From an uncultured Actinobacillus sp. (GTDB taxonomy: Bacteria; Pseudomonadota; Gammaproteobacteria; Enterobacterales; Pasteurellaceae), in NCBI RefSeq assembly GCF_945915845.1, contig NZ_CAMEFX010000009.1, positions 1 to 64,000 of the forward strand: DNA of 64,000 bases, written 5' to 3'. Position numbers and translations under genes: made by a program. This document shows positions 1-64,000 of the stretch, in pieces. The notes beneath the pieces are model-generated. The model did no database searches and had not been told where the DNA came from. It saw nothing but the letters and a program-made list of their open reading frames with translations. Within the stretch, counting starts at the first letter, position 1. Each line of letters starts with the position of its first letter.

Positions 1-1290
1 CTGAGCTATCTGCACTTGAAGCTGAAGATGCTGCTGAAGACGCTGAGCTATCTGCGCTTGAAGCAGATGATGCTGCTGAAGACGCTGAGCTATCCGCACT
101 TGACGCTGAAGATGCTGCTGAGCTTGCTGAGCTGTCTGCACTTGAAGCAGAAGATGCCGCTGAAGACGCTGAGCTGTTCGCACTTGAAGCAGAAGATGCT
201 GCTGAAGACGCTGAGCTGTCTGCACTTGAAGCAGAAGATGCTGCTGAAGACGCTGAGCTGTCTGCGCTTGAAGCAGATGACGCTGCTGAAGACGCTGAGC
301 TATCCGCACTTGACGCTGAAGACGCTGCTGAAGACGCTGAGCTATCTGCACTTGAAGCTGATGAAGCTGCTGAAGACGCTGAGCTGTCTGCACTTGAAGC
401 TGAAGAAGCTGCTGATGAAGCTGAGCTATCTGCACTTGAAGCAGAAGATGCTGCTGAGCTTGCAGAACTATCTGCACTTGAAGCAGAAGAAGCTGCTGAG
501 CTTGCAGAGCTATTTGCGCTTGAAGCAGATGACGCTGCTGAGCTTGCAGAGCTGTTTGCACTTGAAGCTGATGACGCTGCACTTGAAGCTGAGCTGTTCG
601 CGCTTGAAGCAGATGACGCTGCTGAAGACGCTGAGCTGTTTGCGCTTGACGCTGAAGATGCTGCTGAGCTTGCTGAGCTGTTTGCGCTTGAAGCAGATGA
701 CGCTGCACTTGAAGCTGAGCTATTTGCGCTTGACGCTGAAGACGCTGCTGAAGACGCTGAGCTGTTCGCGCTTGAGGCTGATGAAGCCGCTGAGCTTGCT
801 GAGCTGTTTGCGCTTGAAGCAGATGACGCTGCACTTGAAGCTGAGCTATTCGCGCTTGAAGCAGAAGATGCTGCTGAAGACGCTGAGCTGTTTGCGCTTG
901 ACGCTGATGATGCCGCTGAGCTTGCAGAGCTGTTCGCGCTTGAAGCAGAAGACGCTGCTGAAGACGCTGAGCTATTTGCACTTGACGCTGAAGACGCCGC
1001 AGAGCTTGCTGAGCTATTTGCGCTTGAAGCAGATGACGCCGCTGAAGACGCTGAGCTATTTGCGCTTGAAGCTGATGAAGCCGCCGAGCTTGCTGAGCTA
1101 TTTGCGCTTGAAGCAGAAGACGCTGCTGAAGACGCTGAGCTGTTTGCGCTTGACGCTGATGACGCTGCTGAAGACGCTGAGCTATTTGCGCTTGAAGCAG
1201 AAGATGCCGCTGAGCTTGCAGAGCTATTCGCGCTTGACGCTGAAGACGCTGCAGAGCTTGCAGAGCTGTTCGCGCTTGAAGCAGAGCTTC
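1..1290 (-). repeat. 42-bp tandem repeat coding a 14-residue Ser/Ala stalk
   Basis: Thirty complete units and one partial unit of exactly 42 bp are in phase from position 1 to about 1290, and the array continues off the left edge. Each codes 14 residues, typically SSAASSASSADSSA or the same with N for D, and so equals two heptads, as expected for a trimeric coiled-coil stalk. The units differ mainly at third codon positions. Units 1-12 (nearest the C-terminus) carry D in all but one; units 13-31 all carry N. The same array gives a long spurious open frame on the plus strand. Confidence 0.95.
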
Positions 1291-18944: not shown

Positions 18945-20069
18945 TTACCAATTCCTACGATAGCAACCATTCTCACAAATCACTAAGCCTTGCAATTCTA
19001 AATCCAATAATTGCGTCAGTAGTTCATCGACCCCTAATTGGCTTTTTACCACCAGTTCATCTACGCTAATTAATTCATGATTAATCATATCAAAAAGTGC
19101 CGGATGTTCAGGTTCTACAGGCGCAGGGCGAGCCTTGGGCGTAGAAAGTGCGGTGTTTTTTACCGCACTTTGTGGCGTAGTTGGATGGTGAGAAGAAAAG
19201 GTATAAGTCGGTAAATTATCTAAAATATCTTTCACATTCTCCACCAACATTGCCCCTTGCTTAATTAACTTGTGGCAGCCTTCACTAAAACTATTTTGTA
19301 AACTCCCCGGAATAGCAAATACATCTCGATTTTGTTCTAAAGCCAAACGAGCAGTAATCAGTGAGCCGCTACGTTCTGTGGCTTCTACCACCAAAGTGGC
19401 TAAGGATAAACCGCTAATAATTCGATTTCGCCGTGGAAAGTTGGCAGGAATGGGCGGCTGATTAGGGGGAAGTTCAGACACTAAAGCCCCACCATACTCC
19501 AATATTTGCTGGGCTAATTTGCGATGTTTGTTCGGGTAAATCGTCTGTAAGCCATTGCCCAATACAGCAATAGTTTTGCCTTGAATATCCACCACAGCCT
19601 GATGACTAAAGCCATCAATGCCCAACGCCAATCCGCTAGTAACAATTAAACCTGCCGCCCAAAGTTCGGTCGCAAAATATTTAGCCCAGTATTCGCCGTA
19701 ATTCGAACAATAGCGGCTGCCCACCATCGCGATTTGTGGTTCAGATAAAATAGACATATCCCCTTTAACATATAAAACAGCCGGCGCATCAACAGTTTGT
19801 TTTAACAAATAAGGGTAATCGGGGTGTAACAAATGCAGAATATGGCACTGTGGCTGTGCCCCCCATTCTAAAGCCGGTTGAATAAATTTCTGTTCAGGCT
19901 GAAACCAACGTTGAATTTGGAGAGGTTTCCAGCCCATCGCGCGAAAAGCCTCTTGATCATAGTCTAGCAAATCTTCAAGATTGATTTGGCTGAGTAACTC
20001 ATTAATACCATTGGATCCTAAACGCGGAATTTGCTGTAAACGAAGAAAAATTTCTGTGTAATCTGTCAT
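18945..20069 (-). CDS. dprA: DNA processing protein DprA
   Basis: DprA protects incoming single-stranded DNA during transformation and loads RecA on it. From the ATG at 20069 ([18 protein letters not shown], preceded by GGTGAT) the protein is 374 residues; a longer frame to 20171 has an atypical N-terminus and is not preferred. The Rossmann-like core is clear ([53 protein letters not shown]), and a C-terminal winged-helix region follows. An inverted pair of uptake signals (19146-19154 and 19162-19170) lies within the coding sequence. A competence-type operator candidate is upstream at 20290-20311. Confidence 0.97.
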
Positions 20070-22825: not shown

Positions 22826-22858
22826 AAAAAGCCTGCTATGAAGAATAGTGGGCTTTTT
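22826..22858 (+). terminator. Terminator of ilvC
   Basis: AAAAAGCCTGCTAT pairs with ATAGTGGGCTTTTT, ending in five T. The autotransporter start follows 23 bases later. Confidence 0.85.
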
Positions 22859-22880
22859 GTGTATATTAGGGATATTAAAA

Positions 22881-25385
22881 ATGAAGAAATTTCAACTTAG
22901 TGCAATTACGGCAAGTTTAATGTTTGCTTTTTCAGATGCTTATGCTATTGAGCATACTTGTAATGTTCAAACACAGTGTAATTATAGCTGGCTAATAACG
23001 AATACCGAAAAATATCGCACCTTTAATAGAGATACGAGACTTGGCTCAAAATCCGATAATTTAAATGTCAAACTTCTCTCTCAACCTTATCAAAACCAAG
23101 CTGCCGCAAGCTCTGCCACTAGCTCAACTGTTCAGCCTCATTTAATAAATATTAATAATTCAAATCTTGATCTGACAGGTAACCACGAAACAGGAAAAGC
23201 ACAACTGCTGGTTCCAACAGGTGCTACACTCACGTTAGAGAACTTCTCAAGCGATATAGGTGCCAGTGTAATATCTTTGGAAATGGCAGAGGCAACTATC
23301 GAAAAAGGTGTGAAAATCATCTTGGGCAAAAGTTATGAAGAAATAAATAATCTGGATCAAATACCCAATTTTTATGGGATTCATGCTAGTGGTGAAAATA
23401 CTAAAGTGACCAATAGTGCTGATATTGAAGTCAAGGCTGAAGAAGGCACGGCGATTTATATCGCAGATAAAGGAACCCTAACTTCGAACAACCATAACAT
23501 CATTCTGAATAGCCAGTATGCTACGGGAATTGAAGTGACTAGTGGTTCAACGGCGACTATTAATAATGTAAATATATCTGGTGATAATGTTGAGCAAACC
23601 GGCATTACAACAGAGCAGCAATCAAGTTATACCCAAATTAATAACAGTAAAATTAACTTAACCGGTGATGAATCTGGTGGTATCTTAGTATTCAATGCAA
23701 GAGTAGATATAAATAACAGCGATATTAATGCACCATACGCAATAGCGACTGAGGCATTTGGTTACGAAAATTCTGATGACCCAATAATTCCTAGCAACAA
23801 TATTATCAACATCAATAGAAGTAAAGTAGTGGGGCAAAATTCATTATTGATGATTAATCCAAGTAATGATGGTGACGCCAGTGCGCAGGCTAAAATGGAT
23901 CTTGTTAAAATCAGCCTGAATGCTCAGGATAGTGAGCTTTATGGTGGTGTGCTTACAACTTCATTTGATGAAGATACACCTGAATGGTTTACGAATAATT
24001 TGGTTATGACCCTAAATAATAGCCAATGGACAATCAATCACGATAGCAAATTTCAACAGCTTGATATGAATGACGGTAGCCAAGTGATTTTTGAGCGAAA
24101 AAATGGTTTTACTACGCTTTCCTTAGAGAAACTTTCAGGCACAGGATCATTTACTCTCAACACCGATCTCGCCAACCGACAATCCGACAAAATTGTGGTA
24201 ACCGGCTCTGATAGCGGTTCATTTGGTTTAAATATTAAGGATTCAGGTAATGAACCCAATGCAGAAAATGGTAAAGTAACCCTTGTTGAAACCGCAACAG
24301 GCGCCGCAAAATTTGCGTTGTTAGGCAAAGATTATGTGGATGCCGGTGCATACCGTTATCGTTTAGTTAAAGAAGGTAACAATTGGGTACTTTCAAATAA
24401 AGCAGCAGAAAAATCTTCACCATCAACTGCACAAGGTGGTAATCAATCAAGTGCAAATGCAGGCTCAACTGCTGGTACTAGCTCAGGCTCAACTGCAACA
24501 CCTCAGGTTGTACTCAGTGAAAAATCCAACGCTCTTGTTTCACTCCGCCAAGCACAACTTGCCTTAGTGGAAAGCAATCTTGAAGGCTTACACCAACGTT
24601 TAGGTGAATTGAAAAACGGCGAAAAAGGCAATGTATGGGTGCGTAATGTGAACTCACGCAATGATTTTGCTTCAACCCGTACTGCAAGCGACTCTCGCTC
24701 ATCAGGCTTTGAGCAAGATGTTCACAGCGTTCAATTAGGCGCAGATGCTGCTTTAACTGATAATATCCGCTTAGGTGGCTTTGTAGGTAATGCTCGCTCT
24801 GATGTGGATTTTGACGGCGAATACGGTTCAGGTAAAGTGAAAACTCAATCACTCGGTCTTTACGGCACTTACCTTGCCAACAACGGTTTCTATTGGGATA
24901 ACGTGGCAAAATATGAGTATGTAAAATCTGAGTCAGCAACCACTGGCAAACGTAAATACAATGCCTATACCCTTTCAACCGAAATCGGACGTATTCATCA
25001 ATTAGGTCAAGGTTGGACGGTTACCCCACAAATTCAAGCAGCGTGGACAAGATTATCTAGCCAAAGCGATGAAGAACGCTTATCCGCTCTAACTGCCCGT
25101 GCTGGTGTGCGTGTGGCAAAAGCCATTGAGTTCAACGGTTGGAAATTACAACCTTACGCAGAAGTGAATGGCATTACTACACAGACGAATAACAATCAGG
25201 TTCGTGTAAACCAGCATCGCTTTGAAGTTTCTGATGTAGAGGAAGGCAAAGGAAGATTCCAAACGGCTTTAGGGGTAAACGCTGCCGTAGGCAATCATAG
25301 ATTTGGCTTAGAAGGTTCAATCACTAACGGTAAATACTTAGATCAGCCATATAAGGTCCAAGCGGTTTATCGTTATAGCTGGTAA
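22881..25385 (+). CDS. Classical (type Va) autotransporter with beta-helix passenger
   Basis: From the ATG at 22881, preceded by AGGGA, the protein is 834 residues. It has a signal peptide (MKKFQLSAITASLMFAFSDA, cleavage after AYA), then a passenger of about 480 residues rich in Asn, Ser, Thr and short beta strands with repeated NNS/INN turns, typical of a right-handed beta-helix. A Ser/Thr/Ala/Gly-rich linker lies near residues 520-550, and a 265-residue C-terminal beta-barrel begins at NVWVRNVNSR and ends VQAVYRYSW with the terminal aromatic residue. Two Cys sit close together after the signal peptide (HTCNVQTQCNYSW). No protease catalytic motif was seen, so an adhesin-like role is more likely. 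The upstream in-frame start at 22848 lies in the ilvC terminator and is rejected. Confidence 0.93.
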   Translation: MKKFQLSAITASLMFAFSDAYAIEHTCNVQTQCNYSWLITNTEKYRTFNRDTRLGSKSDNLNVKLLSQPYQNQAAASSATSSTVQPHLININNSNLDLTGNHETGKAQLLVPTGATLTLENFSSDIGASVISLEMAEATIEKGVKIILGKSYEEINNLDQIPNFYGIHASGENTKVTNSADIEVKAEEGTAIYIADKGTLTSNNHNIILNSQYATGIEVTSGSTATINNVNISGDNVEQTGITTEQQSSYTQINNSKINLTGDESGGILVFNARVDINNSDINAPYAIATEAFGYENSDDPIIPSNNIININRSKVVGQNSLLMINPSNDGDASAQAKMDLVKISLNAQDSELYGGVLTTSFDEDTPEWFTNNLVMTLNNSQWTINHDSKFQQLDMNDGSQVIFERKNGFTTLSLEKLSGTGSFTLNTDLANRQSDKIVVTGSDSGSFGLNIKDSGNEPNAENGKVTLVETATGAAKFALLGKDYVDAGAYRYRLVKEGNNWVLSNKAAEKSSPSTAQGGNQSSANAGSTAGTSSGSTATPQVVLSEKSNALVSLRQAQLALVESNLEGLHQRLGELKNGEKGNVWVRNVNSRNDFASTRTASDSRSSGFEQDVHSVQLGADAALTDNIRLGGFVGNARSDVDFDGEYGSGKVKTQSLGLYGTYLANNGFYWDNVAKYEYVKSESATTGKRKYNAYTLSTEIGRIHQLGQGWTVTPQIQAAWTRLSSQSDEERLSALTARAGVRVAKAIEFNGWKLQPYAEVNGITTQTNNNQVRVNQHRFEVSDVEEGKGRFQTALGVNAAVGNHRFGLEGSITNGKYLDQPYKVQAVYRYSW

Positions 25386-35834: not shown

Positions 35835-36278
35835 ATGAAATTTAACCGCACTTCATTAACCTTCAATATACGCAAAGGCTTTACCTTGATTGAATTAATG
35901 ATTGTTATCGCCATTGTGGCTATTCTCGCCACCATTGCCATTCCGTCTTATCAAAACTACACCAAAAAAGCGGCGATTTCCGAACTATTACAGGCATCCG
36001 CGCCTTATCGTTCCGAAGTCGAACTTTGTGTTTATAACACGGGCGCTGCCACCAACTGTACCGCGGGCAGCAATGGTATTCAAGCCAACAACACCGGTTT
36101 AGGGAAATATGTCGCCAGCGTCAATGTAGCGGCTGGCGTGGTCACGGTAAAAGGGAAAGGCTCTCTTGATGGCGTAAGCTATACCTTAACGGCAAGCGGA
36201 AATGCTTCAAGCGGCGTCACTTGGGCAACGGTATGTACCCCTGATTCCAGTATTTTCCCATCAGGTTTTTGTAACTGA
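35835..36278 (+). CDS. pilA: Type IV pilin PilA
   Basis: Major subunit of the type IV pilus used for DNA uptake in competence. The 147-residue prepilin has a leader that ends RKG, with Phe16 as the first mature residue and Glu20 at position +5, followed by the hydrophobic N-terminal helix ([20 protein letters not shown]). Four Cys form two likely pairs, one near [10 protein letters not shown] and one in CTPDSS...GFC at the end. First gene of pilABCD; the gap to pilB is 77 bp, larger than the others in the operon. Confidence 0.97.
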
Positions 36279-36355
36279 TTTTTTGGGGAACGCATTAGGG
36301 TAACTCATTTTTACCGCTGTTTTTTTATTCTCAATTGTTTATACAGGATAATGCC

Positions 36356-37738
36356 ATGCCGATCGCTACAACCGCTGACGGAAAACAAATGGAAATTTCA
36401 CCGCACTTATGGGCGAAAAATCAGGATCAACAACATCTGTTGATCCGCTATTTTGCCTTGCCCTTAAAAGAGACGGAACAAACGCTTTGGCTTGGCATAG
36501 ACAGCTTAACCAATATTTCCGCCTGTGATACCTTTTCCTTTCTCGTGGGAAAAACCGTTGAGCCCGTGTTGCTATCTACGGCAGAATTAAAAAAACAGCT
36601 GCAATCCCTTGCGCCACAGACATATCAAGTGGAAGAAAACCCTGTTTTCTATCATATTGAGCAAAATACAGACGCAGAAATCGCACAAAAAACCGATGAA
36701 CCTGTTATTCAGTTGTTAGATCATATCTTTGAACAAGCCTTACAACAACAGGCATCGGACATTCATTTTGAACCCCAAGCCTCGCAGTTACAGGTTAGAT
36801 TTCGTATTGATGGTGTATTGCAAACGCAATCCCCCATTTCACCGGCATTGTCTCAGCGCATCATTTCACGTTTAAAATTACTGGCGAAACTGGATATTGC
36901 GGAAACAAGGTTACCACAAGATGGCCGATTTCATTTTAAAACCACATTTTCTGATGTGTTAGATTTTCGCCTTTCCACCTTGCCCACACCGCTAGGTGAA
37001 AAAATTGTACTACGGGTTCAACAAAATAAACCTGTCACATTCGCCTTTGCGGATTTGGGCATGACACCCCAACAACAGCAAACATTTCAATGGGCATTAA
37101 TGCAACCGCAAGGATTAATTTTAGTGACAGGCCCTACAGGTAGCGGCAAAAGTATTTCCCTTTACACCGCACTTTCTTATCTCAATACGCCCGACAAACA
37201 CATTATGACCGCGGAAGATCCCATTGAGATTGAGTTAGCCGGCATTATTCAAACTCAAGTAAACCCACAAATCGGATTAGATTTCAGTCGGTTACTTCGT
37301 ACATTTTTACGTCAAGATCCCGATATCATTATGCTTGGGGAAATTCGTGATGAAGAAAGCGCGATTATGGCATTACGTGCGGCGCAAACAGGGCATCTAG
37401 TATTATCCACCTTACACACCAATGATGCACAATCTGCCATTTCCCGCCTATTGCAATTAGGTATTCAACAGCATGAAATTGACAATGCTTTGCTCTTAGT
37501 TATTGCGCAACGCTTGGTGAGAAAACGTTGTCAAAAGTGCGGTGAAAAAATGGAAAGTTTCTGTGACTGTCATCAAGGTTACAAAGGACGTATCGGTATT
37601 TATCAATTCTTACAGCGCAATCAAGAGGGACATTTTCACACTGACTACCCCTCTCTTTATCAAGCAGCCCTGAACAAAGTCGCCGATCACACAACAGACT
37701 TAGCTGAAATTCAACGTGTTTTAGGAAGTGAGTCATGA
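36356..37738 (+). CDS. pilB: Type IV pilus assembly ATPase PilB
   Basis: PilB drives pilus extension. With ATG at 36356, preceded by AGGA, the protein is 460 residues; a TTG start at 36335 is weaker. It shows the Walker A GPTGSGKS, Asp box (EDPIEI), Walker B (IIMLGEIRDEESA) and the His box (GHLVLSTLHTND), and a tetracysteine zinc site near the end (CQKCGEKMESFCDC). Its stop overlaps the pilC start by four bases. Confidence 0.97.
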   Translation: MPIATTADGKQMEISPHLWAKNQDQQHLLIRYFALPLKETEQTLWLGIDSLTNISACDTFSFLVGKTVEPVLLSTAELKKQLQSLAPQTYQVEENPVFYHIEQNTDAEIAQKTDEPVIQLLDHIFEQALQQQASDIHFEPQASQLQVRFRIDGVLQTQSPISPALSQRIISRLKLLAKLDIAETRLPQDGRFHFKTTFSDVLDFRLSTLPTPLGEKIVLRVQQNKPVTFAFADLGMTPQQQQTFQWALMQPQGLILVTGPTGSGKSISLYTALSYLNTPDKHIMTAEDPIEIELAGIIQTQVNPQIGLDFSRLLRTFLRQDPDIIMLGEIRDEESAIMALRAAQTGHLVLSTLHTNDAQSAISRLLQLGIQQHEIDNALLLVIAQRLVRKRCQKCGEKMESFCDCHQGYKGRIGIYQFLQRNQEGHFHTDYPSLYQAALNKVADHTTDLAEIQRVLGSES

Positions 37739-38955
37739 CATTAAAATGCTATCGCTGGAAAGGAAGAAACCGACTAAATCAACGGCAAAAAGGCATGTTG
37801 GTGGCAGAAGATGAAACACAAGCAAAACAAGAATTGTTTAAGCGTGGTTTGCAACAAATTCACCTGCAACAAAATTGGCAACTTTCAACAAAACCGAAAA
37901 ACGCCGAAGTTTGCGATCTGTTACAACAGTTAGCCACGCTACTCAACGCAACAGTTCCTCTAAAAAATGCCTTGCACATTTTGTTACAAAATTGCACCAA
38001 TATTTCCCTGAATCAATGGTTACGTCATTGTATTGCAGATATTGAGCGTGGGTTATCTTTTTCACAAACCCTAGAACGCCAAGCCTTATTTTTAACAGCA
38101 CAAGAGTATCAATTAATTAAAGTCGGAGAAATGACCGGTAAATTGGCTACAGTGTGTACGCAAATTGCCGGCCATAAACAACAAGCTCTCGCATTGCAAC
38201 GTAAAATCCAGAAAATCTTGCTCTATCCTGTGATGGTTTTAGCTATCTCATTCATATTGACTATACTTTTATTAATCTTTGTGGTGCCACAATTTGCAGA
38301 AATGTATGGCAATAATCAGGCTCAACTGCCAACTTTCACCCTGATTTTACTCAGCTTATCCCATGGTCTACAGCATTATTTTTGGCTATTGGTTATCCTA
38401 ATGACAATCACGCTTATCACATTCAAATATCAACTACGTCATTCCGCTCAGCTGAACCTCTACAAAGCAAACCTAATTTACAGCCTGCCTATTCTAGGTA
38501 ATATTACCGCGTTGGCACGCTTAATTCGTTTTTGTCGTAACTTACAATTAATGTTGCAATCAGGGATTCCGCTCACTCAAGCGTTACAATCTTTTTTACC
38601 CCAAAAGAAAAGTTGGCAAACCAAAACACCTTGGCAAGGCGATCCTATTTTGATTCAAGAAGTCGAAGCCATGTTGCAGTGGATTACGCAAGGCTATGCC
38701 TTTTCTACCAGTGTAGGGTCGGGCCTATTTCCCATGCAAGCCCAACAAATGTTACAGGTGGGGGAGCAATCAGGACAGTTAAACCAAATGCTCAAACATA
38801 TTGCAGACACTTATCAACAGCAATTAGATCACCACATTGATCTACTATCCCAAATGCTCGAACCTTTGTTAATGGTCATTATTGGCGGACTTATCGGCTT
38901 AATCATGCTCGGGATGTATTTACCTATTTTTAACATGGGATCGCTAATTCAATGA
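37735..38955 (+). CDS. pilC: Type IV pilus inner-membrane platform protein PilC
   Basis: The 406-residue protein has the duplicated T2SF domain layout: two cytoplasmic domains, each followed by membrane segments (about 165-190, 215-240 and near the C-terminus). Typical signatures are VPLKNALHIL, SFSQTLERQ..FLTAQEYQLIKVGEMTGKL and in the repeat GEQSGQLNQML. It overlaps pilB and pilD by four bases each. Confidence 0.96.
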   Translation: MTLKCYRWKGRNRLNQRQKGMLVAEDETQAKQELFKRGLQQIHLQQNWQLSTKPKNAEVCDLLQQLATLLNATVPLKNALHILLQNCTNISLNQWLRHCIADIERGLSFSQTLERQALFLTAQEYQLIKVGEMTGKLATVCTQIAGHKQQALALQRKIQKILLYPVMVLAISFILTILLLIFVVPQFAEMYGNNQAQLPTFTLILLSLSHGLQHYFWLLVILMTITLITFKYQLRHSAQLNLYKANLIYSLPILGNITALARLIRFCRNLQLMLQSGIPLTQALQSFLPQKKSWQTKTPWQGDPILIQEVEAMLQWITQGYAFSTSVGSGLFPMQAQQMLQVGEQSGQLNQMLKHIADTYQQQLDHHIDLLSQMLEPLLMVIIGGLIGLIMLGMYLPIFNMGSLIQ

Positions 38956-39626
38956 TTTATCTTCTATGTTTTGGATTCTGTGGGATAATGGGGTGGATTG
39001 CCCATCATTATGTCACACATTTTGCCCAACAGCTCTCACAAGATATTTATAATAGCTATTGTGAAGTTTTCCCTGAAAATCCACCGCACTTTTCACCTCA
39101 ATGCTCGGTGTTAAAACCCATTAAGTGCGGTAAAAAATGGCTGAGTTTTTTAACTGCCGGTGCGATATTTGTTATCAATGATATGATTATCAATCACCCT
39201 ATCTTCGCGATCATTATGAGTGCCGTATTAATATTACTGTTTGTGATTGCTCTCATTGACTGGCATTACCAATTAATTTCCCCAGCCTTATGTCAGTTTT
39301 TACTTTGTATGGGATTGGGCTTAGCTTATTATCAGGTTATTTCACCCACCTTGGAACAAAGCCTTTTTTCTGCCGGCATAGGCTTTGTGCTTTTTTGGGG
39401 CATTTTTCATGTCTCAACATGGTATTACCGGAAAGAAGCCTTTGGTCGCGGAGATTATTGGTTAATTGCTGCCTTAAGCAGTTTTTTACCTTGGCAACTT
39501 CTCCCTCTTTTTATTTTTCTTTCCTGTATTCTTGCCCTAGGCTATGCCCTCATTAGTCGCACCAAAATTATTCCTTTTGCCCCCTTTCTGAACCTTGGGG
39601 CTATCCTTGCCTTTGTGATAGGATAA
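38952..39626 (+). CDS. pilD: Prepilin peptidase PilD (short form)
   Basis: PilD cleaves the pilin leader. At 224 residues it is shorter than typical PilD. Both catalytic aspartates are present: Asp103 in ALIDWHYQLIS and Asp168 in FGRGDYW. The N-terminal region, which in full-length enzymes carries the N-methylation module with two CxxC pairs, is reduced, with only CSVLKPIKC left. It is strongly hydrophobic. Last pil gene of the operon, overlapping pilC by four bases; coaE follows after 26 bases. Confidence 0.93.
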   Translation: MIYLLCFGFCGIMGWIAHHYVTHFAQQLSQDIYNSYCEVFPENPPHFSPQCSVLKPIKCGKKWLSFLTAGAIFVINDMIINHPIFAIIMSAVLILLFVIALIDWHYQLISPALCQFLLCMGLGLAYYQVISPTLEQSLFSAGIGFVLFWGIFHVSTWYYRKEAFGRGDYWLIAALSSFLPWQLLPLFIFLSCILALGYALISRTKIIPFAPFLNLGAILAFVIG

Positions 39627-50978: not shown

Positions 50979-51530
50979 TTATTTCAGTCGAGTTTTCAGT
51001 TGTATTGCTCGATCAGAAGATATTTTTTCAAGCTTAGATAAATTTTCTTGATAAATCATATGGTTATTTTGAGCATAAGCACAAAGTGCAAAATTTTCAA
51101 AGGTATCTGCTTGATGATAATAATTGGGGGTATTTAAGGCTTGTTGAAATTGGGCATAAGCCTGCTCAAAATGCCCTTGTTCACATAAGAATGTACCATA
51201 ATTATTGCGTACATCGCCTTGTTCTTTATTCAACGCAATGGACTTAAGATAAGATTGATTCGCTTGCTCGACAAGACCTTGCTTTTGATAAAAATAAGCA
51301 AAGGCGGAATGCACAAGATAATAATCCGGCGCATAACTTAGTGCTTTATCCAAATTGAGTTTTGCTTGAGCAAGTTCTTGTTGATACAGATAACCGATAG
51401 CCAATTCTACTCGCGCTTTGGCGGCTTGCTGTTTATCAAATGTTGCATTAGGTGGACTAGAAATACAAGCAGTTAGTGTTAATACCCATAAAAAGTGCGG
51501 TTTAACTTGGATAAATTTTAATCTGTTCAT
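50979..51530 (-). CDS. pilW: Type IV pilus biogenesis lipoprotein PilF/PilW (TPR)
   Basis: Pilotin-like TPR lipoprotein needed for outer-membrane secretin assembly. From MNRLKFIQVK at 51530 (ribosome-binding GGAGAGA) it has 183 residues, lipobox LTAC, then TPR repeats (ARVELAIGYLYQQELAQAKLNL, VHSAFAYFYQKQGL, VRNNYGTFLCEQG). In H. influenzae the orthologue (pilF2) belongs to the competence regulon together with the upstream rlmN, which fits the operator candidate at 52792. Confidence 0.93.
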   Translation of the reverse strand: MNRLKFIQVKPHFLWVLTLTACISSPPNATFDKQQAAKARVELAIGYLYQQELAQAKLNLDKALSYAPDYYLVHSAFAYFYQKQGLVEQANQSYLKSIALNKEQGDVRNNYGTFLCEQGHFEQAYAQFQQALNTPNYYHQADTFENFALCAYAQNNHMIYQENLSKLEKISSDRAIQLKTRLK

Positions 51531-51561
51531 TATCTCTCCTAAATCTAACCGCACTTTAACG

Positions 51562-55886: not shown

Positions 55887-56540
55887 ATGATGAAAATTAA
55901 AAGTGTTATTTTTGATATGGATGGTGTGCTAATTGATAGCGAACCATTTTGGGCTGAAGCACAAATTTCAATTCTAGCTCGTTACGGCATTGCTATTACC
56001 GATGAAGATTGTGAGAAATACACGCGCGGTATTCGTGTAGATGAATTAGCCGCCATTTGGGTTGATATGTTTAATTTATCGATTTCACCTAATGAACTTA
56101 AAAAAGAAATAGTAGAAAAAGTCTGTGCACGTATTACTGCTGATGGTGAATCGATGAATGGACTTTATGAATTACTCAATTTCCTAAAATCAAAAGGAAT
56201 TACATTGGCTCTCGCGACCTCATCAAATCGACAAGTCATCAAAGCAGTATTCGATAAATTGAATTTGTGGGATTATTTCCCAATACAATGCACTGCTGCG
56301 GATGAAGAACTCGCCAAACCTCACCCTGCAGTTTATTTAAGCGCGGTGAAAAAATTAGGTGTATCGGTCAAAGACTGCATCATCATTGAAGATAGTGTAA
56401 CGGGTTTAATTGCAGCAAAAGCAGCAAATATTCGTACCTTTATTGTCAATTCAAATTCAACCAATGAACGCTTTGCTATTGCAGATGAACGAGTGAAGAG
56501 TTTACTTAATGTATTAGAAATACTAAAAAAAGAACTATAA
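55887..56540 (+). CDS. HAD-family sugar phosphatase (HxpB/YniC-like)
   Basis: A 217-residue HAD hydrolase with motif I DMDGVLIDSE, motif II ATSSN, the Lys of motif III (AKPHPAVYL) and motif IV IIEDSVTGLIAA. It resembles E. coli YniC, a 2-deoxyglucose/hexitol phosphatase; the physiological substrate cannot be read from the sequence. AAGGAG precedes two consecutive ATG codons (55887, 55890). Confidence 0.9.
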   Translation: MMKIKSVIFDMDGVLIDSEPFWAEAQISILARYGIAITDEDCEKYTRGIRVDELAAIWVDMFNLSISPNELKKEIVEKVCARITADGESMNGLYELLNFLKSKGITLALATSSNRQVIKAVFDKLNLWDYFPIQCTAADEELAKPHPAVYLSAVKKLGVSVKDCIIIEDSVTGLIAAKAANIRTFIVNSNSTNERFAIADERVKSLLNVLEILKKEL

Positions 56541-56651: not shown

Positions 56652-57110
56652 ATGACAAAAGTTATAACTCTTTTACTTGCTCTAATTCTCGCAGGTTGCG
56701 CTGCAAAAGAAACCAAAAAAATACCCAACATCCCACTTGAGCCACCTCAATCGGTAGAGCAAGGTTATTTAAAAATATCACAACAGGCGCATTATTATGC
56801 TGATATTAATTCCGTATGGGCAGAATCAGGTAAACGGCATCTCGTTTATTTCGATATTGTGATCAATATGACAAAAGGGCTTTATAATTTTGGTGATCCA
56901 ACCATCTATGCAAAATCAATGAGACAATCAAAAGTAATCAACTGTCAAACTTATCAATTAACACAATTAAATACGGATTATTATTCTGAATTTTGGGGCA
57001 AGGGTGAACGTTCTTCTCTCAAAAAACAACGCCAGCGTACCATCAAGCTAAGAAAAGGCTCTTCCCTTTATACATTAAGCGAGATTTTGTGTGTTAACTT
57101 AATGCGTTAG
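56652..57110 (+). CDS. Predicted lipoprotein
   Basis: A 152-residue protein with lipobox LAGC (Cys16) after a short hydrophobic signal. The mature part is basic, with two late Cys (VINCQTYQL, EILCVNLMR) and no motif I recognise. It is preceded by AAGGAG and shares a terminator with jetD. Function unknown. Confidence 0.75.
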   Translation: MTKVITLLLALILAGCAAKETKKIPNIPLEPPQSVEQGYLKISQQAHYYADINSVWAESGKRHLVYFDIVINMTKGLYNFGDPTIYAKSMRQSKVINCQTYQLTQLNTDYYSEFWGKGERSSLKKQRQRTIKLRKGSSLYTLSEILCVNLMR

Positions 57111-57158: not shown

Positions 57159-58340
57159 CTACACGCCCTCTAACCAATCTAACAAGCACTTTTCAATATA
57201 ATCAGCATTAACCCGTTCTTGTTCTAAACGCGTTTTACCGTAGTCACCTTGTCTTAAGCGTTGAAATAGCTGTTGTTCTTGCATAGTCAAATTAGGCGGA
57301 ATTTGGTTTAATGATTGCGGTTCGTCTACCATTCGCCCCTGAAATGTCAGCACAGTTTGTTCGTCCATCATAAGTGCGGTCAAATTGGGGCAACGTTCTC
57401 GTGCTAAACTCAAAATATGAAAGCCATCACTATCTATATCGCCCCAATAACCAATCTTTTTGTCCTTTAGCCAATTGGCTGCCAACCAAGTGACATTTTT
57501 ACCACCACCAGCCACCGCAATCGTCTCCCTAAGCACCGGTAACGCTAAACAAGATTGCTCATTTTCTACAATCAAAATTCTTTTGGCGGGTAGCATATAA
57601 TTCCACAAGGTTTCTGAGCTTAAACGCAACAAAGGTAAGTTGCCTAACGCCTGTTGTGTTTGTGGGCAAAGGGGTTTAACCAACAGCCAATCCTTTGGCT
57701 TGGCTTTACAATTTAACCAACTTAACAGCCCCTTTGCTTTCACTTCGCCGTCATAAAGTACATTCAACACATCTTCTAGCAAACGAAAATGGCACTCCAC
57801 AAATTTGGTGTCCACACCCACTAGCGGCAATGCCCGTAAATAATCCCCCTTCCCCATTTGAGGTTTAAGTTGCGGAACAACATCACGAAATAATGAGAGA
57901 TCTTCTAGCGAAAATTCTTCAATCTGCTCTAAATGATCGATAAAAACATGGAACAACGCCGATTGTGCCGGTAAGGTTTCCAACAAAAATGCCAATTTTG
58001 TTTTCCAGCTTTCAAATTGATATTTTACTTTTTCACCTAACACTTCCACCAAATTATCCCAATTAGGGATAATCCATTTCGTTGGTACCTGCTGTTCACC
58101 AAAGTGGCGATATTGTCGAGCCCTCCATTCAATCTTAAAACAACAAGGTTGGTTTTGCCAAGAAGTGACAAATTGCTCGAAAAGTGCGGTCTGTTTTAAC
58201 AACAAATTGCCACTTTTAGGCGGTTTAAGCGCAATTTCAATGGGAAATGCCCGCTCGCCTTTTAGCCTGGCTTTGCAATGCACTCGGTTTTGCCATTCTT
58301 TTTGGTATAGTTGAGCAATGGCTTGTTCAGGTAAAATCAT
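57159..58340 (-). CDS. jetD: Wadjet plasmid-defence nuclease subunit JetD
   Basis: JetD is the subunit of the Wadjet system that cleaves circular plasmid DNA. The 393-residue protein has the DUF3322 N-terminal part and the DUF2220 Toprim C-terminal part: ILIVENE (Glu259) and WGDIDSDG (Asp301, Asp303) are the metal-binding residues. It is the last gene of jetABCD and overlaps jetC by four bases. Two uptake signals lie in it (57372-57380, 58182-58190). Confidence 0.94.
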   Translation of the reverse strand: MILPEQAIAQLYQKEWQNRVHCKARLKGERAFPIEIALKPPKSGNLLLKQTALFEQFVTSWQNQPCCFKIEWRARQYRHFGEQQVPTKWIIPNWDNLVEVLGEKVKYQFESWKTKLAFLLETLPAQSALFHVFIDHLEQIEEFSLEDLSLFRDVVPQLKPQMGKGDYLRALPLVGVDTKFVECHFRLLEDVLNVLYDGEVKAKGLLSWLNCKAKPKDWLLVKPLCPQTQQALGNLPLLRLSSETLWNYMLPAKRILIVENEQSCLALPVLRETIAVAGGGKNVTWLAANWLKDKKIGYWGDIDSDGFHILSLARERCPNLTALMMDEQTVLTFQGRMVDEPQSLNQIPPNLTMQEQQLFQRLRQGDYGKTRLEQERVNADYIEKCLLDWLEGV

Positions 58341-61300
58341 GAGATAACCTCAATGCCTAATTTATCCAAAGATTGTTGTTGGCGTGCTGCCTGTTGACGA
58401 TCTAACTCTTGCCAGGTCATTTCACACAAACGGCTTTCGTGTTTGTCTGGATCCCGTTCTGCGATCAGCAAACTTCTGGCAGATTCTCGCGCTAAATCAA
58501 GATTTTTAAACGGTGTAATCAGATTGACGTGAATATGCAAGGCTTTAAACACGCGTAAAACGCGACGACTGACACTTTCTGCGGTATTGGAAAACGCCTC
58601 ATCTAAAAACACCGTACAATACACAGGGCGGTCGCAATGATCCGGGGTTAACACATAGGCTAAACTTGCCGCCATAATGACACCTGCAAACGACTCTTTT
58701 TCGCCACCTGATTTACCGCTAGAAGAATCTAACACATCTAAAACTGCTTGCGTTTCATTGTGAATTTCTTCTGCATAAAATGCCATTTGATAGCGCGGAT
58801 CTAATAATCGTAAGCTCTCAAGAGTATGAGCACTTTGGCTGCTGCTTGCCTTCTCCAAAATATTGACAATATCTTGTAATAAATAAAAACGCTCTTCGTG
58901 ATTATCACCCGTCAAATAACTCAAGGCTTTTTTCACTTTTTTATCAAACTCTTGAACGTGATAATATTTTTCCCGTTTGGCTGTCAAACGTAAGTAGCTG
59001 TTTTGCTTAAATTCCGTTTTCGCCAAGACCAAGTTGATACGGTTAATACGATCACGGATCTTTTCATATTCAGTTTCTAGCTGATTTTGTAACCGAGCCA
59101 ACGATTGTGTCGTATGCTTGTTTAAACGGCCTTTAAACTTCTCAAATAATTCAGGTAGCCCTTCTTTTTGTAACTTATCGAGATAACGGAGAAAATCAGA
59201 AAGCCCAGCTAGATCGCTAAGCCAATCGACAGTTAATGGTTGCCATTTTGTATTACCTCTAAATCTGTCCATTATACTTCTAGCATCGTTTTCTTCTTTT
59301 GCCAGTTTCTTTTGTACAGCGGTAAAGTCATTTATTAACAGATTCTCTACATTACTTTGTTGCATCGCATCATCTAATCTCACCACACCTACACGCTTTG
59401 CCAACAAGGGACGAATTGTCTCATCAATGCCTGATTGCATCTGTTCTTCAGCCTGTTCCAACTGAATTTGAGTGTTTTTCAAATTATTTTCTTGCGAACC
59501 TTTTTCAGCGGACAAGTTATTTTGTTGTGTTTGCAATTCTTGTAATGCTGCTTTAGCTTCTTCCCAACGGATTTTTGCTTGATTTAAATCGCCGGAACAT
59601 TGCTCAAGTGCGGTCAATTCTTGCTGAGTTTTAGCTAATTGTTGTTGCCAATAAGGGGCATTAATCTCTTCCCATTGGAATTCACTTAATTTTTTCCACT
59701 GATCAATCTGATCTTGTAATTGCGCCATGCCTTGATAAGCTTTTGCAACTGACCCTTTAGATTGGGCAATATCCTGTTCAAGACGATGCAGCTCGGTTTT
59801 AAGCAAAGCTAAACGTTGTTGATTGCTAAAACCCAGTTGCCATTGACGGCGATCTGTGATTTTGTGCTGATCTTTTTTCTCAAAATAGCCCTGTTGCAAA
59901 TGGATTAAACCTTGTTGCGTTAGGGAAAATGGCGTGCGATTCAGTTCTTCGACAGAAGAAACACAGTGCAAATCAAATTTTTCTAAATAGTTTTTTAGCC
60001 AATTTTGATACGGATGTGCTCGCCAAACTAATTTAGTTAAAAAGCCTTGCGCGGAAAATTGCACTGCTGATGGACTTTCGTCATCAACCACTTGCACACG
60101 CACCAATAGCCCCGTATGATGACGATTCAACCAATCCGTCACTTGGGCATAATTTCCTTGTGGTACTAAAAGCGTGGTGCGGCGACCACCTAAAGCGCGT
60201 TCAATCGCCCCTTGCCACGGTTGTTCATTTTCTTTGACATCAATTAATTCGCCAATAAACATCAACACATTATCGGCAAAGTGCAGTTCTTGTTGTAAAC
60301 GATCACGTAATTGTTGATATTGCAACGCAATATTAGAATTCGGTCGGGAGGCAATTTCTTGCATTTCCGTCTCCGTTTCTGACCGCACTTTCTCCAAGCT
60401 TTGCTGCTGTTGCGCTAATTGGGCATATTCGGTTAATTTGGCATCTTTTTGAGCTTGACTATCCGCTAATTGCGCTTTAGCAACTTGTTGATTTTGCTGA
60501 AAAACAACTTCAGATAATTTTTCATCCATATTCAATTTGCGACAAGTTTCTTGATAAAGACCACTCCCCTGAATAATCCGCTCCAAGTTAGCTTGCTCAT
60601 AAGCTAGCTCTTTTTTCAACATTTCAATTTGATTACCGCCTAACTTAAGATAATCAGCATGGCGTTGTTCTACAAGATTTTCGCTATCTTGGATTTCTGT
60701 TTCACATTGATGAAGTTGGTGATACAGGTTCTCAAGTTCCGTTTTCAAGTGAGTAATTTCTTGGGTTAAAAGTATCGCAGTTTGCTCTGCAAAATAAGCG
60801 CCAAGATTTGATTTTTGCTGTTCTAATTGCTGTTGTTGAGCTTGAAGTCGCGTAATATTTTCCGCCAGAATTGGCAATTTTTCTAAATGTTCGACTTGCT
60901 GACGCACATCAAGTAATTGATCGTGCGTTGCCACCAAATCGGCAAATTCACTCACAATCTGCCGCGCCTCATCTCTAATCTGACTCGGTTCTAGCACTAA
61001 CTCACGAATAAGTTGCGTTAAATCATCAATTTTTTTCAACCCCAATGCACGAGAAAGCAACGCAGGTGCATTTTTATTTTCCATCCCCAAATAAGTACGG
61101 TACAAATCTTGATATTCATTAAAACGATCATCGCAACAAATCACTTCGGGTTTATTTTTGAGCCACTGCTTAAACTGTCTAACATCACCATTTCCAAAAG
61201 CATCTAATACGCTTTTGAGTGGCAAATAATTCTTAGCAATTAAATAGCAACGTTTTACATCACTTAGGCTATTGCTCGCTTGCAACGTCCAAAAGAGCGC

Positions 61301-61684
61301 AATTAAGGTAATTTGTGAGCCATCATCGTTGCGATACAAAGCTTGTAAACCGCTTAGCACGGCCTTCTCACGTTTGCTTTTGACCCGTGTTTGTGAACCA
61401 TCATGTTCTGACCCGAAACTGCCACGCATATAAGAAAGCAAAGAACGGTCGCTACGATCCCCTTGAGCAGCGGCGACATTAAAACTGGCTTTGCCGGCAG
61501 GTTGTAACAATGCCATTAGTCCATCAATAAAAGTAGATTTGCCTGTGCCATTCGTGCCTGTAATTAACGTACCTTCAGGGTTGATTTGGGCGGAATGTAA
61601 ACCATGAAATGAACCCCAGTTATACACAGCTAATTCCGCAAGACGAATTTGCCCTTGTCCGAATAAATCACTTTGCGCGCCCAT
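58337..61684 (-). CDS. jetC: Wadjet SMC-like ATPase JetC
   Basis: JetC is the motor of the loop-extruding Wadjet complex. The 1115-residue protein has Walker A GTNGTGKST (43-51), two long coiled-coil stretches (about 250-440 and 620-900) separated by a hinge-like globular part, the ABC signature SGGEKESF and Walker B VFLDEAF near residue 1020. It is shorter than MukB of E. coli. Its start overlaps the jetB stop by one base with a strong AAAGGAGG ahead of it. Uptake signals at 59606-59614 and 60382-60390. Confidence 0.95.
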   Translation of the reverse strand: MGAQSDLFGQGQIRLAELAVYNWGSFHGLHSAQINPEGTLITGTNGTGKSTFIDGLMALLQPAGKASFNVAAAQGDRSDRSLLSYMRGSFGSEHDGSQTRVKSKREKAVLSGLQALYRNDDGSQITLIALFWTLQASNSLSDVKRCYLIAKNYLPLKSVLDAFGNGDVRQFKQWLKNKPEVICCDDRFNEYQDLYRTYLGMENKNAPALLSRALGLKKIDDLTQLIRELVLEPSQIRDEARQIVSEFADLVATHDQLLDVRQQVEHLEKLPILAENITRLQAQQQQLEQQKSNLGAYFAEQTAILLTQEITHLKTELENLYHQLHQCETEIQDSENLVEQRHADYLKLGGNQIEMLKKELAYEQANLERIIQGSGLYQETCRKLNMDEKLSEVVFQQNQQVAKAQLADSQAQKDAKLTEYAQLAQQQQSLEKVRSETETEMQEIASRPNSNIALQYQQLRDRLQQELHFADNVLMFIGELIDVKENEQPWQGAIERALGGRRTTLLVPQGNYAQVTDWLNRHHTGLLVRVQVVDDESPSAVQFSAQGFLTKLVWRAHPYQNWLKNYLEKFDLHCVSSVEELNRTPFSLTQQGLIHLQQGYFEKKDQHKITDRRQWQLGFSNQQRLALLKTELHRLEQDIAQSKGSVAKAYQGMAQLQDQIDQWKKLSEFQWEEINAPYWQQQLAKTQQELTALEQCSGDLNQAKIRWEEAKAALQELQTQQNNLSAEKGSQENNLKNTQIQLEQAEEQMQSGIDETIRPLLAKRVGVVRLDDAMQQSNVENLLINDFTAVQKKLAKEENDARSIMDRFRGNTKWQPLTVDWLSDLAGLSDFLRYLDKLQKEGLPELFEKFKGRLNKHTTQSLARLQNQLETEYEKIRDRINRINLVLAKTEFKQNSYLRLTAKREKYYHVQEFDKKVKKALSYLTGDNHEERFYLLQDIVNILEKASSSQSAHTLESLRLLDPRYQMAFYAEEIHNETQAVLDVLDSSSGKSGGEKESFAGVIMAASLAYVLTPDHCDRPVYCTVFLDEAFSNTAESVSRRVLRVFKALHIHVNLITPFKNLDLARESARSLLIAERDPDKHESRLCEMTWQELDRQQAARQQQSLDKLGIEVIS

Positions 61685-62433
61685 TATTCAGCCTCCTTTG
61701 GATTATTATCTTGCTCACTGTCTTTTCTCAGCCCAGATTCTTTAGCCAGCCTTAAATATTCCGCCAACATTGATTCTAAAAATTCGGTACCGATGATATA
61801 GCGAATAATCGGCGTAATTTCAAAGCGATCTTCCGATCCACGAATGGGTGCAAGAATTTTCCGCTTGACCATTTCTTTTAATCTACCCGATAGTTTTTTA
61901 CGTTCAAGGCTGCCGTGATCCGTTAAAGGCTGGAAAGGGGTTAAATTTGATTCAATACGTTCAATATCGATCACAACTTTTTGTTCACCATAATCTTTAC
62001 GTTCTCGATAATGTTTGCATAATACTAAGATAAGTAACGTATCCGGAAGAGAAAGTGTTCGGCGAGTAATTAAAGAAAGGATTTCTTCCTCTTCCTCACC
62101 ATTTTCATCACAACTAGCTTGGTCGTTAGTGGCGACAAAAGCGACGCCATTGAGTTCGTCTAATATTAAATAGAGATAAATTTGTGAAAGGTAATGCCGA
62201 ATAGCTTCTTGATAATGACATAATTCTTTGAAGAGTTTGGGTTTTTGTGAGGCTAGAATAACACCTTGACGAAGTAGATAAACCAATACACGCCGAGTCT
62301 CTTCTGACAAGCCTTCTACCATCTCGTCATCTTCTTCAGGCTCGTTAAGGGATTCAGATTCTAATTCAGGGGAAGAGGTTGGTTCAACTGTTTCTTTTTT
62401 TCTCGTAATGATTTCAAAAAAACTATTTGACAT
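61684..62433 (-). CDS. jetB: Wadjet kite-like subunit JetB (DUF4194)
   Basis: A 249-residue protein with an acidic start (EPEEDDEMVEGL) and tandem winged-helix-like regions (SLPDTLLILVLCKHYRER, LKEMVKRKILAPIRGSEDRFEITPII). JetB is the MukE-like partner that links JetA to JetC. Start at 62433, with AGGAGG ahead; gap of eight bases from jetA. Confidence 0.92.
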   Translation of the reverse strand: MSNSFFEIITRKKETVEPTSSPELESESLNEPEEDDEMVEGLSEETRRVLVYLLRQGVILASQKPKLFKELCHYQEAIRHYLSQIYLYLILDELNGVAFVATNDQASCDENGEEEEEILSLITRRTLSLPDTLLILVLCKHYRERKDYGEQKVVIDIERIESNLTPFQPLTDHGSLERKKLSGRLKEMVKRKILAPIRGSEDRFEITPIIRYIIGTEFLESMLAEYLRLAKESGLRKDSEQDNNPKEAE

Positions 62434-62441
62434 ATAGCCTC

Positions 62442-63902
62442 CTAAACATTTAACTCATCCATATTAGACGGAAAAAGTTCCGCACTTAGCAATAAAATGG
62501 GTACAGAAACCTTCAATTTATTGCCTTGATGATCTTCAATAATGACCGATTCTTTTTCGTTCAATTCCGTTGCCCGAATAGCCTTAGCAACTCGCACATA
62601 AGAGACTAATTCTTCCAAACCAGCATGAATGGGACGGTGTTGCACCAAGCCAGCAATGGAAAGAACCCCTTGTTGTTGTAATATTTTCTGAAGTGCTTTT
62701 GCTACTTGACGAACATTAACAGATTGTAAACTTCCTAAAACCTCATCAGTCACTTTATTTGAGTTAATTTGCAATTGGGTATTGGTTTCTAGTTTTTCAT
62801 CAGGTTGTTTTAGCCGTATAGATTGTGGTGAGGTAATGAGAATTGGACCAACTGGTAGGGAAAGTGCGGTGTTTTTTTGTAATAAATTTTCAACGTTTCC
62901 TAACTCTATCGCTAATTTTTCTAATTGACTAATTAGGCGATCAATAGCTTGATTTTCCTGTGCTTGACCACTTTCAATATAAGCTCGTAGTTCTTGTTCT
63001 GTACGACGCCGAATACGAAAAATTCGTTGGCTTTCATTATTGAGCTCATTCATGAGTTGCGCTAAGAAACGAGACTGATTACCCAAAAGATATTGCGAAA
63101 CACCGTCATTTTCTAGTAAAAGTCGAATTTGCTCGCGAAATTCTGTAGCTCGATTCGGATCACAAAGTAGTTGGAAAAAACCTTCGAATGCATTTCCGGC
63201 TTCTGTTTTAGCCAGCAATTCCTCTTTTTCCATCATAGATTGCAATACCTTTCCACGTGAACTGTCTTCTGCAATCATTTGAATACGCAACTCTTGATCA
63301 AGGCGGCGAATTTCTTCTTCCAGTAAGCGAAAATCACCTGTTAACACAGAACAAAGTTGATAAATTTCTTGAATCCGTTCGCGCTTAGTATTGTCATCCA
63401 ATTCAACCAAAATACCTGCTTGCAATGCGTCAATTTCATGCTGAATTTCCGATTTTTTCTGTTCGAGTAACGCAAGGCGTTCATCTGTATTGCTACTCAA
63501 TGCAACAACAAAATCTCGTACTGCATCTTGTACAATACGCAAATGAGATGCCGTTGTGCCTGCGGCTCGCTCTTCTAATTGACGAGCAAAACGTAATGCG
63601 GTTTGAGCCGCATCAGTTTTTGTTAAGTGGTTATCCATCTCCCTTAACCAACCTTGGCGAATCCATTGATTTAGGTAAGTATTAGCATTAGTTTCCGTTT
63701 CCCAAATCCCCAATTCACGGCTACGTTCAATTTCGGTTTCCAGTAATAAACGAGCTTGCCCGTATTCTATTTCGCTGTCATCTGCAAATAAGGACTCGAT
63801 AAAGGCTAAAATATAAGGTGCATTATCTGCACGCAACAAAGACCACGCCCGATGTTCCGACAATAGGCGTTTGTATTTGGCTTGAAGAGATTGGAAGGTC
63901 AA
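62442..63902 (-). CDS. jetA: Wadjet kleisin subunit JetA (DUF3375)
   Basis: JetA is the kleisin, similar in role to MukF. The 486-residue protein has the DUF3375 N-terminal segment (WSLLRADNAPYILAFIESLFADD), a long helical middle part, and a C-terminal winged helix. The start is TTG, supported by AGGAG about nine bases upstream. One uptake signal (62862-62870). First gene of the operon. Confidence 0.94.
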   Translation of the reverse strand: MTFQSLQAKYKRLLSEHRAWSLLRADNAPYILAFIESLFADDSEIEYGQARLLLETEIERSRELGIWETETNANTYLNQWIRQGWLREMDNHLTKTDAAQTALRFARQLEERAAGTTASHLRIVQDAVRDFVVALSSNTDERLALLEQKKSEIQHEIDALQAGILVELDDNTKRERIQEIYQLCSVLTGDFRLLEEEIRRLDQELRIQMIAEDSSRGKVLQSMMEKEELLAKTEAGNAFEGFFQLLCDPNRATEFREQIRLLLENDGVSQYLLGNQSRFLAQLMNELNNESQRIFRIRRRTEQELRAYIESGQAQENQAIDRLISQLEKLAIELGNVENLLQKNTALSLPVGPILITSPQSIRLKQPDEKLETNTQLQINSNKVTDEVLGSLQSVNVRQVAKALQKILQQQGVLSIAGLVQHRPIHAGLEELVSYVRVAKAIRATELNEKESVIIEDHQGNKLKVSVPILLLSAELFPSNMDELNV

Positions 63903-63937
63903 AATGGACTCCTTGATTTTCTAGAAATTCTAATCTC

Positions 63938-63971
63938 ATCTGATTATTTAGCCTTTCCGTGCTAATCAGAT
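63938..63971. promoter_or_regulatory. Inverted repeat upstream of jetA
   Basis: ATCTGATTA and TAATCAGAT are perfect nine-base arms, 16 bases apart, about 36 bases before the jetA start. This may be an operator, a leader hairpin, or the terminator of a gene outside the window. The window ends before a full promoter can be judged. Confidence 0.45.
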
Positions 63972-64000
63972 TGATTTGAACTTAAATTATTTTCTGCCCA

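What the first reader, a model, noticed from the sequence alone, without database searches (positions are those of the whole stretch)
57159..63902. Complete Wadjet (JetABCD) plasmid-defence operon in a naturally competent bacterium
Four tightly coupled genes (gaps or overlaps of 8, -1 and -4 bases) code DUF3375, DUF4194, SMC-like ATPase and DUF3322/DUF2220-Toprim proteins in the order of type I Wadjet. Catalytic residues are intact in JetC (Walker A and B, signature) and JetD (Glu259, Asp301, Asp303), so the system looks active. Wadjet is known to cleave circular plasmids while sparing linear DNA; in a transformable host this would let linear chromosomal DNA enter freely while blocking plasmids.
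Basis: partly seen in the sequence, partly recalled or inferred. Interest (0 to 1): 0.7.

Follow-up and report, generated by a model that had tools for sequence, protein, structure and literature searches.

The report
Complete type I Wadjet plasmid-defence operon
This is an intact, ordinary set of four genes that detects and cuts circular plasmids, carried by a Pasteurellaceae bacterium equipped to take up DNA; it is a new member of a well-known defence system, and its main interest is that it carries the host's own DNA-uptake signals and has been broken by a phage remnant in a sister species.

Summary
Four overlapping minus-strand genes (57159-63902) encode JetD, JetC, JetB and JetA. Every one gives its best PADLOC match to a type I Wadjet model and matches solved JetABCD structures; catalytic residues are intact, and the predicted JetD fold matches solved JetD. 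MukBEF is excluded. It is therefore a complete type I Wadjet and very probably an active circular-DNA nuclease (activity inferred, not shown). The competent-host claim is supported at gene level (comEC, sxy/tfoX, pilQ, dprA, pilABCD; 1501 uptake sequences against 47 for a control pattern). The claim that it spares transforming DNA while blocking plasmids is plausible but untested. New here: (1) the operon carries five AAGTGCGGT uptake sequences, at genome-typical density; related operons outside the family carry none. (2) It sits between a 5S rRNA gene and the art/adhesin-E block, at a variable site that holds a probable R-M pair or a transposase in sister species. (3) In Actinobacillus porcinus NM319 the same operon, at the same place, is wrecked by a Mu-like phage fragment. 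(4) Wadjet is rare in the family (5 of 140 genomes), was acquired at least twice, and three of five loci look broken. New member of a known kind; modest interest.

The parts
62442..63902 (-). jetA (486 aa, TTG start), kleisin-like subunit, DUF3375
   Evidence: PF11855 386 bits; PADLOC JetA1 740.7 bits, residues 1-485; solved JetA E=5.8e-42
61684..62433 (-). jetB (249 aa), KITE-like subunit, DUF4194; N-terminal SFFEIITRK aligns with GFFDKLINR of solved E. coli JetB
   Evidence: PF13835 120.5 bits against MksE 45 bits; PADLOC JetB1 304.4 bits; solved JetB E=3.9e-11
58337..61684 (-). jetC (1115 aa), SMC-like ATPase with Walker A at residue 43, signature at 992, Walker B at 1027
   Evidence: PADLOC JetC1 1395.9 bits; solved JetC E=8.5e-142; motifs
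57159..58340 (-). jetD (393 aa), nuclease: N-terminal DUF3322 domain and C-terminal Toprim with E259, D301, D303
   Evidence: PF09983 and PF11795; PADLOC JetD1 514.8 bits; residues; AlphaFold model pLDDT 88.8 matching 7til, 8b7f and the Toprim of 8q72
57372..57380 (+). DNA uptake sequence AAGTGCGGT inside jetD (codon 321, read as TAL)
   Evidence: shared with the A. porcinus copy
58182..58190 (+). DNA uptake sequence inside jetD (codon 51, read as TAL)
   Evidence: shared with the A. porcinus copy
59606..59614 (+). DNA uptake sequence inside jetC (codon 691, read as TAL)
60382..60390 (-). DNA uptake sequence inside jetC (codon 432, read as KVR)
62862..62870 (+). DNA uptake sequence inside jetA (codon 345, read as TAL)
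   Evidence: shared with the A. porcinus copy (L009:1420)
63903..64000 (-). jetA leader; the 5S rRNA gene lies just outside the window (contig 64137-64252, minus), with its terminator at about 64094-64127
   Evidence: the only promoter-like match in the leader is no better than chance
56652..57110 (+). adhesin-E-like lipoprotein gene, conserved neighbour on the other side of the site
   Evidence: PF16747 66.9 bits; present in A. porcinus, G041, G043 and G044

Best explanation
A complete, probably functional type I Wadjet (JetABCD). JetA, JetB and JetC form a MukBEF-like SMC motor that reels in DNA using ATP. On a small closed circle the two motor halves run out of free DNA and meet, which activates the JetD Toprim nuclease to cut the circle; linear DNA is released at its ends and the large chromosome is spared. 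In this competent Pasteurellaceae bacterium it would act on plasmids once they have become double-stranded circles. Shown here: gene content, order, domains, catalytic residues, JetD fold, genomic setting. Taken from the literature on homologues: the mechanism. Inferred: expression and activity in this host. It has probably lived in this lineage since before the split from A. porcinus, long enough (or by transfer among close kin) to carry the host's own uptake sequences.
For: All four genes match type I models end to end; solved JetABCD chains match by sequence; the JetD model matches solved JetD (E 1.2e-24) and the E. coli JetD Toprim at 1.9 A over 116 columns. Catalytic residues are invariant. 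The mechanism of homologues is in PMC10586767: circular but not linear DNA is cut, independently of sequence, needing ATP and JetC. A native Wadjet in Clostridium cellulovorans lowers plasmid conjugation about 5 logs, and a heterologous one lowers natural plasmid transformation of B. subtilis about 2 logs (PMC12287153). Five uptake sequences lie in the operon against 0.05 expected by chance and 4.5 at genome density; none in eight related Wadjet loci outside the family. Same site and shared uptake sequences in A. porcinus.
Against: No expression or activity data. The jetA start is TTG and no convincing promoter was found. Three of the five family loci look broken, so the system may often be dispensable. 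The genome is a draft of 85 contigs, and whether this strain carries plasmids was not examined.
Confidence: 0.93

Rival explanations
1. A housekeeping SMC system (MukBEF or MksBEF) rather than a defence system.
For: JetB also matches Pfam MksE weakly (45 bits), and the subunits share a MukBEF-like architecture.
Against: A nuclease gene jetD is present; DUF4194 outscores MksE 120 to 45; JetC1 at 1396 bits and solved JetC at 1e-141. Genuine MukF in a related genome scores only 18.5 bits with DUF3375, below the cut-off, in a mukFEB cluster.
Confidence: 0.02
2. A silent or decaying Wadjet: sequence intact but not expressed, on the way to loss as in related genomes.
For: In A. porcinus the same operon is destroyed by a Mu-like fragment plus a jetC deletion; G067 jetD has a stop at codon 336 and G048 jetC is cut off at an IS-like sequence. 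No clear promoter.
Against: All four frames are intact here, with conserved catalytic and structural residues; selection appears to have kept the reading frames since the split (JetA 92.6%, JetD 85% identical).
Confidence: 0.15

Closest known systems
Type I Wadjet JetABCD of E. coli GF4-3 (PDB 8as8, 8bfn, 8q72) and P. aeruginosa PA14 (7til, 8dk1-8dk3)
   Same: Four subunits, same gene order, same domains, same JetD catalytic triad, sequence matches over most of each protein, same predicted JetD fold.
   Different: Distant in sequence (JetD 20-26% identical in the structure alignment).
Wadjet relatives in other gammaproteobacterial families (G280, G222, G153)
   Same: JetC 54-55% identical; same gene order; nearest rows in the JetC tree.
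   Different: No AAGTGCGGT uptake sequences.
Actinobacillus porcinus NM319 locus (L009/L048)
   Same: Same operon, same site, JetD 85% and JetA fragment 92% identical.
   Different: jetB missing, jetA and jetC reduced to fragments around a Mu-like phage remnant; only jetD is whole.
Type I Wadjets of G067, G135 and G048 (same family)
   Same: Type I-like gene set (JetA/DUF3375, JetC, JetD), Pasteurellaceae.
   Different: Separate lineage (about 26-28% JetC identity, separate clade), other genomic sites, other (Apl-type) uptake sequences nearby.

Membership tests
Type I Wadjet | Four genes jetA-jetB-jetC-jetD in one operon in that order | tested here: met
   ORFs and spacing; families
Type I Wadjet | Best matches to type I (not II or III) models for every subunit | tested here: met
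   JetA1/B1/C1/D1 at 741/304/1396/515 bits; the best type II JetC model scores 20 bits and type III JetD 17 bits
Type I Wadjet | JetC ABC-type ATPase motifs intact | tested here: met
   Walker A, signature and Walker B present
Type I Wadjet | JetD Toprim nuclease with the acidic residues intact | tested here: met
   E259, D301, D303; fold match to 7til, 8b7f, 8q72
[quoted passage not shown]
   Known for homologues (PMC10586767); no assay here
MukBEF/MksBEF housekeeping condensin | MukB, MukE, MukF or MksBEF profiles match best and no nuclease subunit is present | tested here: not met
   MksE match is weaker than DUF4194; jetD is present
Naturally competent Pasteurellaceae | Competence genes and over-represented uptake sequences | tested here: met
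   comEC (27), sxy/tfoX (55), pilQ (56), dprA (69), pilABCD/pilW (68); 1501 AAGTGCGGT against 47 for the reversed pattern (57)
Naturally competent Pasteurellaceae | Actually transforms in the laboratory | not testable with these tools
   No strain data

The most novel reading that the evidence does not exclude
In competent Pasteurellaceae a Wadjet operon has become a transformation-borne module: tagged with the host's uptake sequences, it is exchanged among relatives as linear DNA at a site next to an rRNA operon, while its own activity removes circular competitors, so that the two routes of gene transfer are kept apart.
Probability: 0.15. Interest if true: 0.55.

Novelty: new member of a known kind. 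Interest (0 to 1): 0.3.

Why it matters
It adds an intact Wadjet in a family where it is rare (5 of 140 genomes over the cut-off, against about 10% of a sample of the class), together with a closely related naturally broken copy and siblings without it. That gives a natural comparison for testing whether Wadjet changes plasmid content, and whether it affects plasmid but not chromosomal transformation in a native competent host; PMC12287153 says nearly nothing is known of Wadjet in native hosts. The uptake sequences inside a defence operon also show how such a system can become embedded in a transforming species.

Tried and rejected
MukBEF/MksBEF identity: rejected by profiles and structures. 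The weak DUF3375 hit in G037 turned out to be MukF of mukFEB, so it was not counted. Recent foreign acquisition: not supported, since GC is 0.403 against 0.414 for the rest of the window and uptake-sequence density is genome-typical. Mobile-element ends or target duplications flanking the operon: none found. Carriage on phages or plasmids: one distant phage record for JetA and 11 plasmid records for JetD, none Pasteurellaceae, best 40% identical. Promoter search: no better than chance. Papers naming both Wadjet and Pasteurellaceae or Haemophilus: one each, by title not about Wadjet in this family; not read further. In the JetC tree one row (L040) has a very long branch, probably a wrong-frame ORF picked by my script, and should be ignored.

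Full report
What is there. Pfam finds DUF3375, DUF4194, SMC-type AAA_29 and SbcC_Walker_B, and DUF3322 plus JetD_C. PADLOC's best matches are type I models for all four, end to end. Solved JetA, JetB, JetC and JetD chains match by sequence. JetD E259 aligns with the E248 mutated in PDB 8q72, and E259, D301 and D303 are invariant across 11 homologues. An AlphaFold model of JetD (mean pLDDT 88.8, pTM 0.55, so domain placement is uncertain) finds solved JetD and MksG-type nuclease structures first, and the Toprim of E. coli JetD aligns at 1.9 A over 116 columns. The contig ends at 64432, beyond the operon.

How it most likely works. For homologues, JetABC is an ATP-driven SMC complex thought to extrude DNA loops, and JetD is a nuclease that cuts when the motor has reeled in a whole small circle; linear DNA escapes at its ends (review PMC10586767). 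Nothing in the sequence departs from this. Activity in this host is inference.

The host. The genome has comEC, sxy/tfoX and pilQ, and the window itself holds dprA, pilABCD and pilW (pilD by position only, no NCBIfam match). AAGTGCGGT occurs 1501 times in 2.2 Mb against 47 for the reversed control. So the 'naturally competent' label is well supported by genes, though not by experiment. Natural transformation of plasmids is known to be lowered by a heterologous Wadjet in B. subtilis, about 100-fold (PMC12287153 citing Doron et al. 2018). The idea that Wadjet leaves chromosomal transformation free fits the biochemistry but is untested, and single-stranded uptake would give the same result without it.

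Uptake sequences in the operon. The operon has five exact copies, all inside genes and read as TAL or KVR. Chance would give about 0.05 and genome density 4.5. The three in jetA and jetD are shared with A. porcinus. Eight related Wadjet loci outside the family (about 75 kb) have none, and at the two jetD sites the homologues outside the genus do not encode TAL. GC content is close to that of the rest of the window. The operon therefore looks naturalised: long resident, or received from close kin.

The site. The operon lies between a 5S rRNA gene (contig 64137-64252) and the adhesin-E/HAD/artPIQM block. In G043 the same interval holds a Mutator-family (IS256-like) transposase and keeps a 46-bp piece that matches the sequence just upstream of jetA, with no jet genes (transposase family). 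In G041 it holds an HNH nuclease gene and a fused DNA methyltransferase, a probable restriction-modification pair; the 5S end is off that contig. In G044 the adhesin gene abuts ampD and pil genes instead; G045 shows no jet or 5S sequence beside its art genes. So this is a small variable spot, with defence genes in at least two species lineages.

The broken copy. In A. porcinus NM319 (G042, L009) jetA stops after residue 364, jetB is gone, and jetC is reduced to codons of about 177-188 joined to 999-1115, while jetD is whole. Between lies about 2.7 kb with a Mor-type activator split by a stop, a GemA protein and regulators, an internal piece of a Mu-like phage. Two separate rearrangements are the simplest reading. 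Nucleotide identity of the jet remnants (81-85%) is in the range of neighbouring fast genes (pilF2 83%, rodZ 79%), compatible with vertical descent.

Distribution. In the family 5 of 140 genomes pass the DUF3375 cut-off, against 38 of 369 in a sample of the class, own genome included (Fisher p 0.018, not corrected for relatedness). The other three family members, G067, G135 and G048, form a separate JetC clade at other sites: at least two acquisitions. G067 jetD has an in-frame stop at codon 336 and G048 jetC ends at an IS-like sequence at a contig end; draft errors cannot be excluded. Only this operon and G135's look whole.

Verdict. Correctly identified; a new member of a known system. The genomic setting adds modest interest.

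Noticed in passing
L009:1489-4250 (A. porcinus NM319): Internal fragment of a Mu-like phage (Mor split by a stop, GemA, regulators) lodged inside the jet operon, with jetD left whole and downstream; two rearrangements are the simplest reading.
   Followed up: yes
L044:406-2660 (G041): HNH nuclease gene and a protein joining a C-5 cytosine methylase domain to an N6/N4 methylase domain at the equivalent site; the joining of two methylase kinds may merit a look.
   Followed up: partly
window 19212-19868, 35835-39626, 50979-51554: Competence genes dprA, pilABCD and pilW lie in the same window as the Wadjet operon.
   Followed up: yes
window 2-5710: Large trimeric autotransporter adhesin (YadA head and stalk repeats, ESPR signal), running off the window start.
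   Followed up: no
window 22848-25385: Autotransporter with pertactin-like passenger and beta-domain.
   Followed up: no
L012:11497-12646 (G067) and L014:95-2548 (G048): Wadjet of the second family lineage: jetD with one in-frame stop (G067) and jetC cut off at an ISAs1-like transposase start at the contig end (G048; IS identity judged by eye).
   Followed up: partly
window 55887-56540 against L009: A HAD hydrolase gene between artM and the adhesin-E gene is present here and in G041, G043 and G044 but missing in A. porcinus.
   Followed up: no
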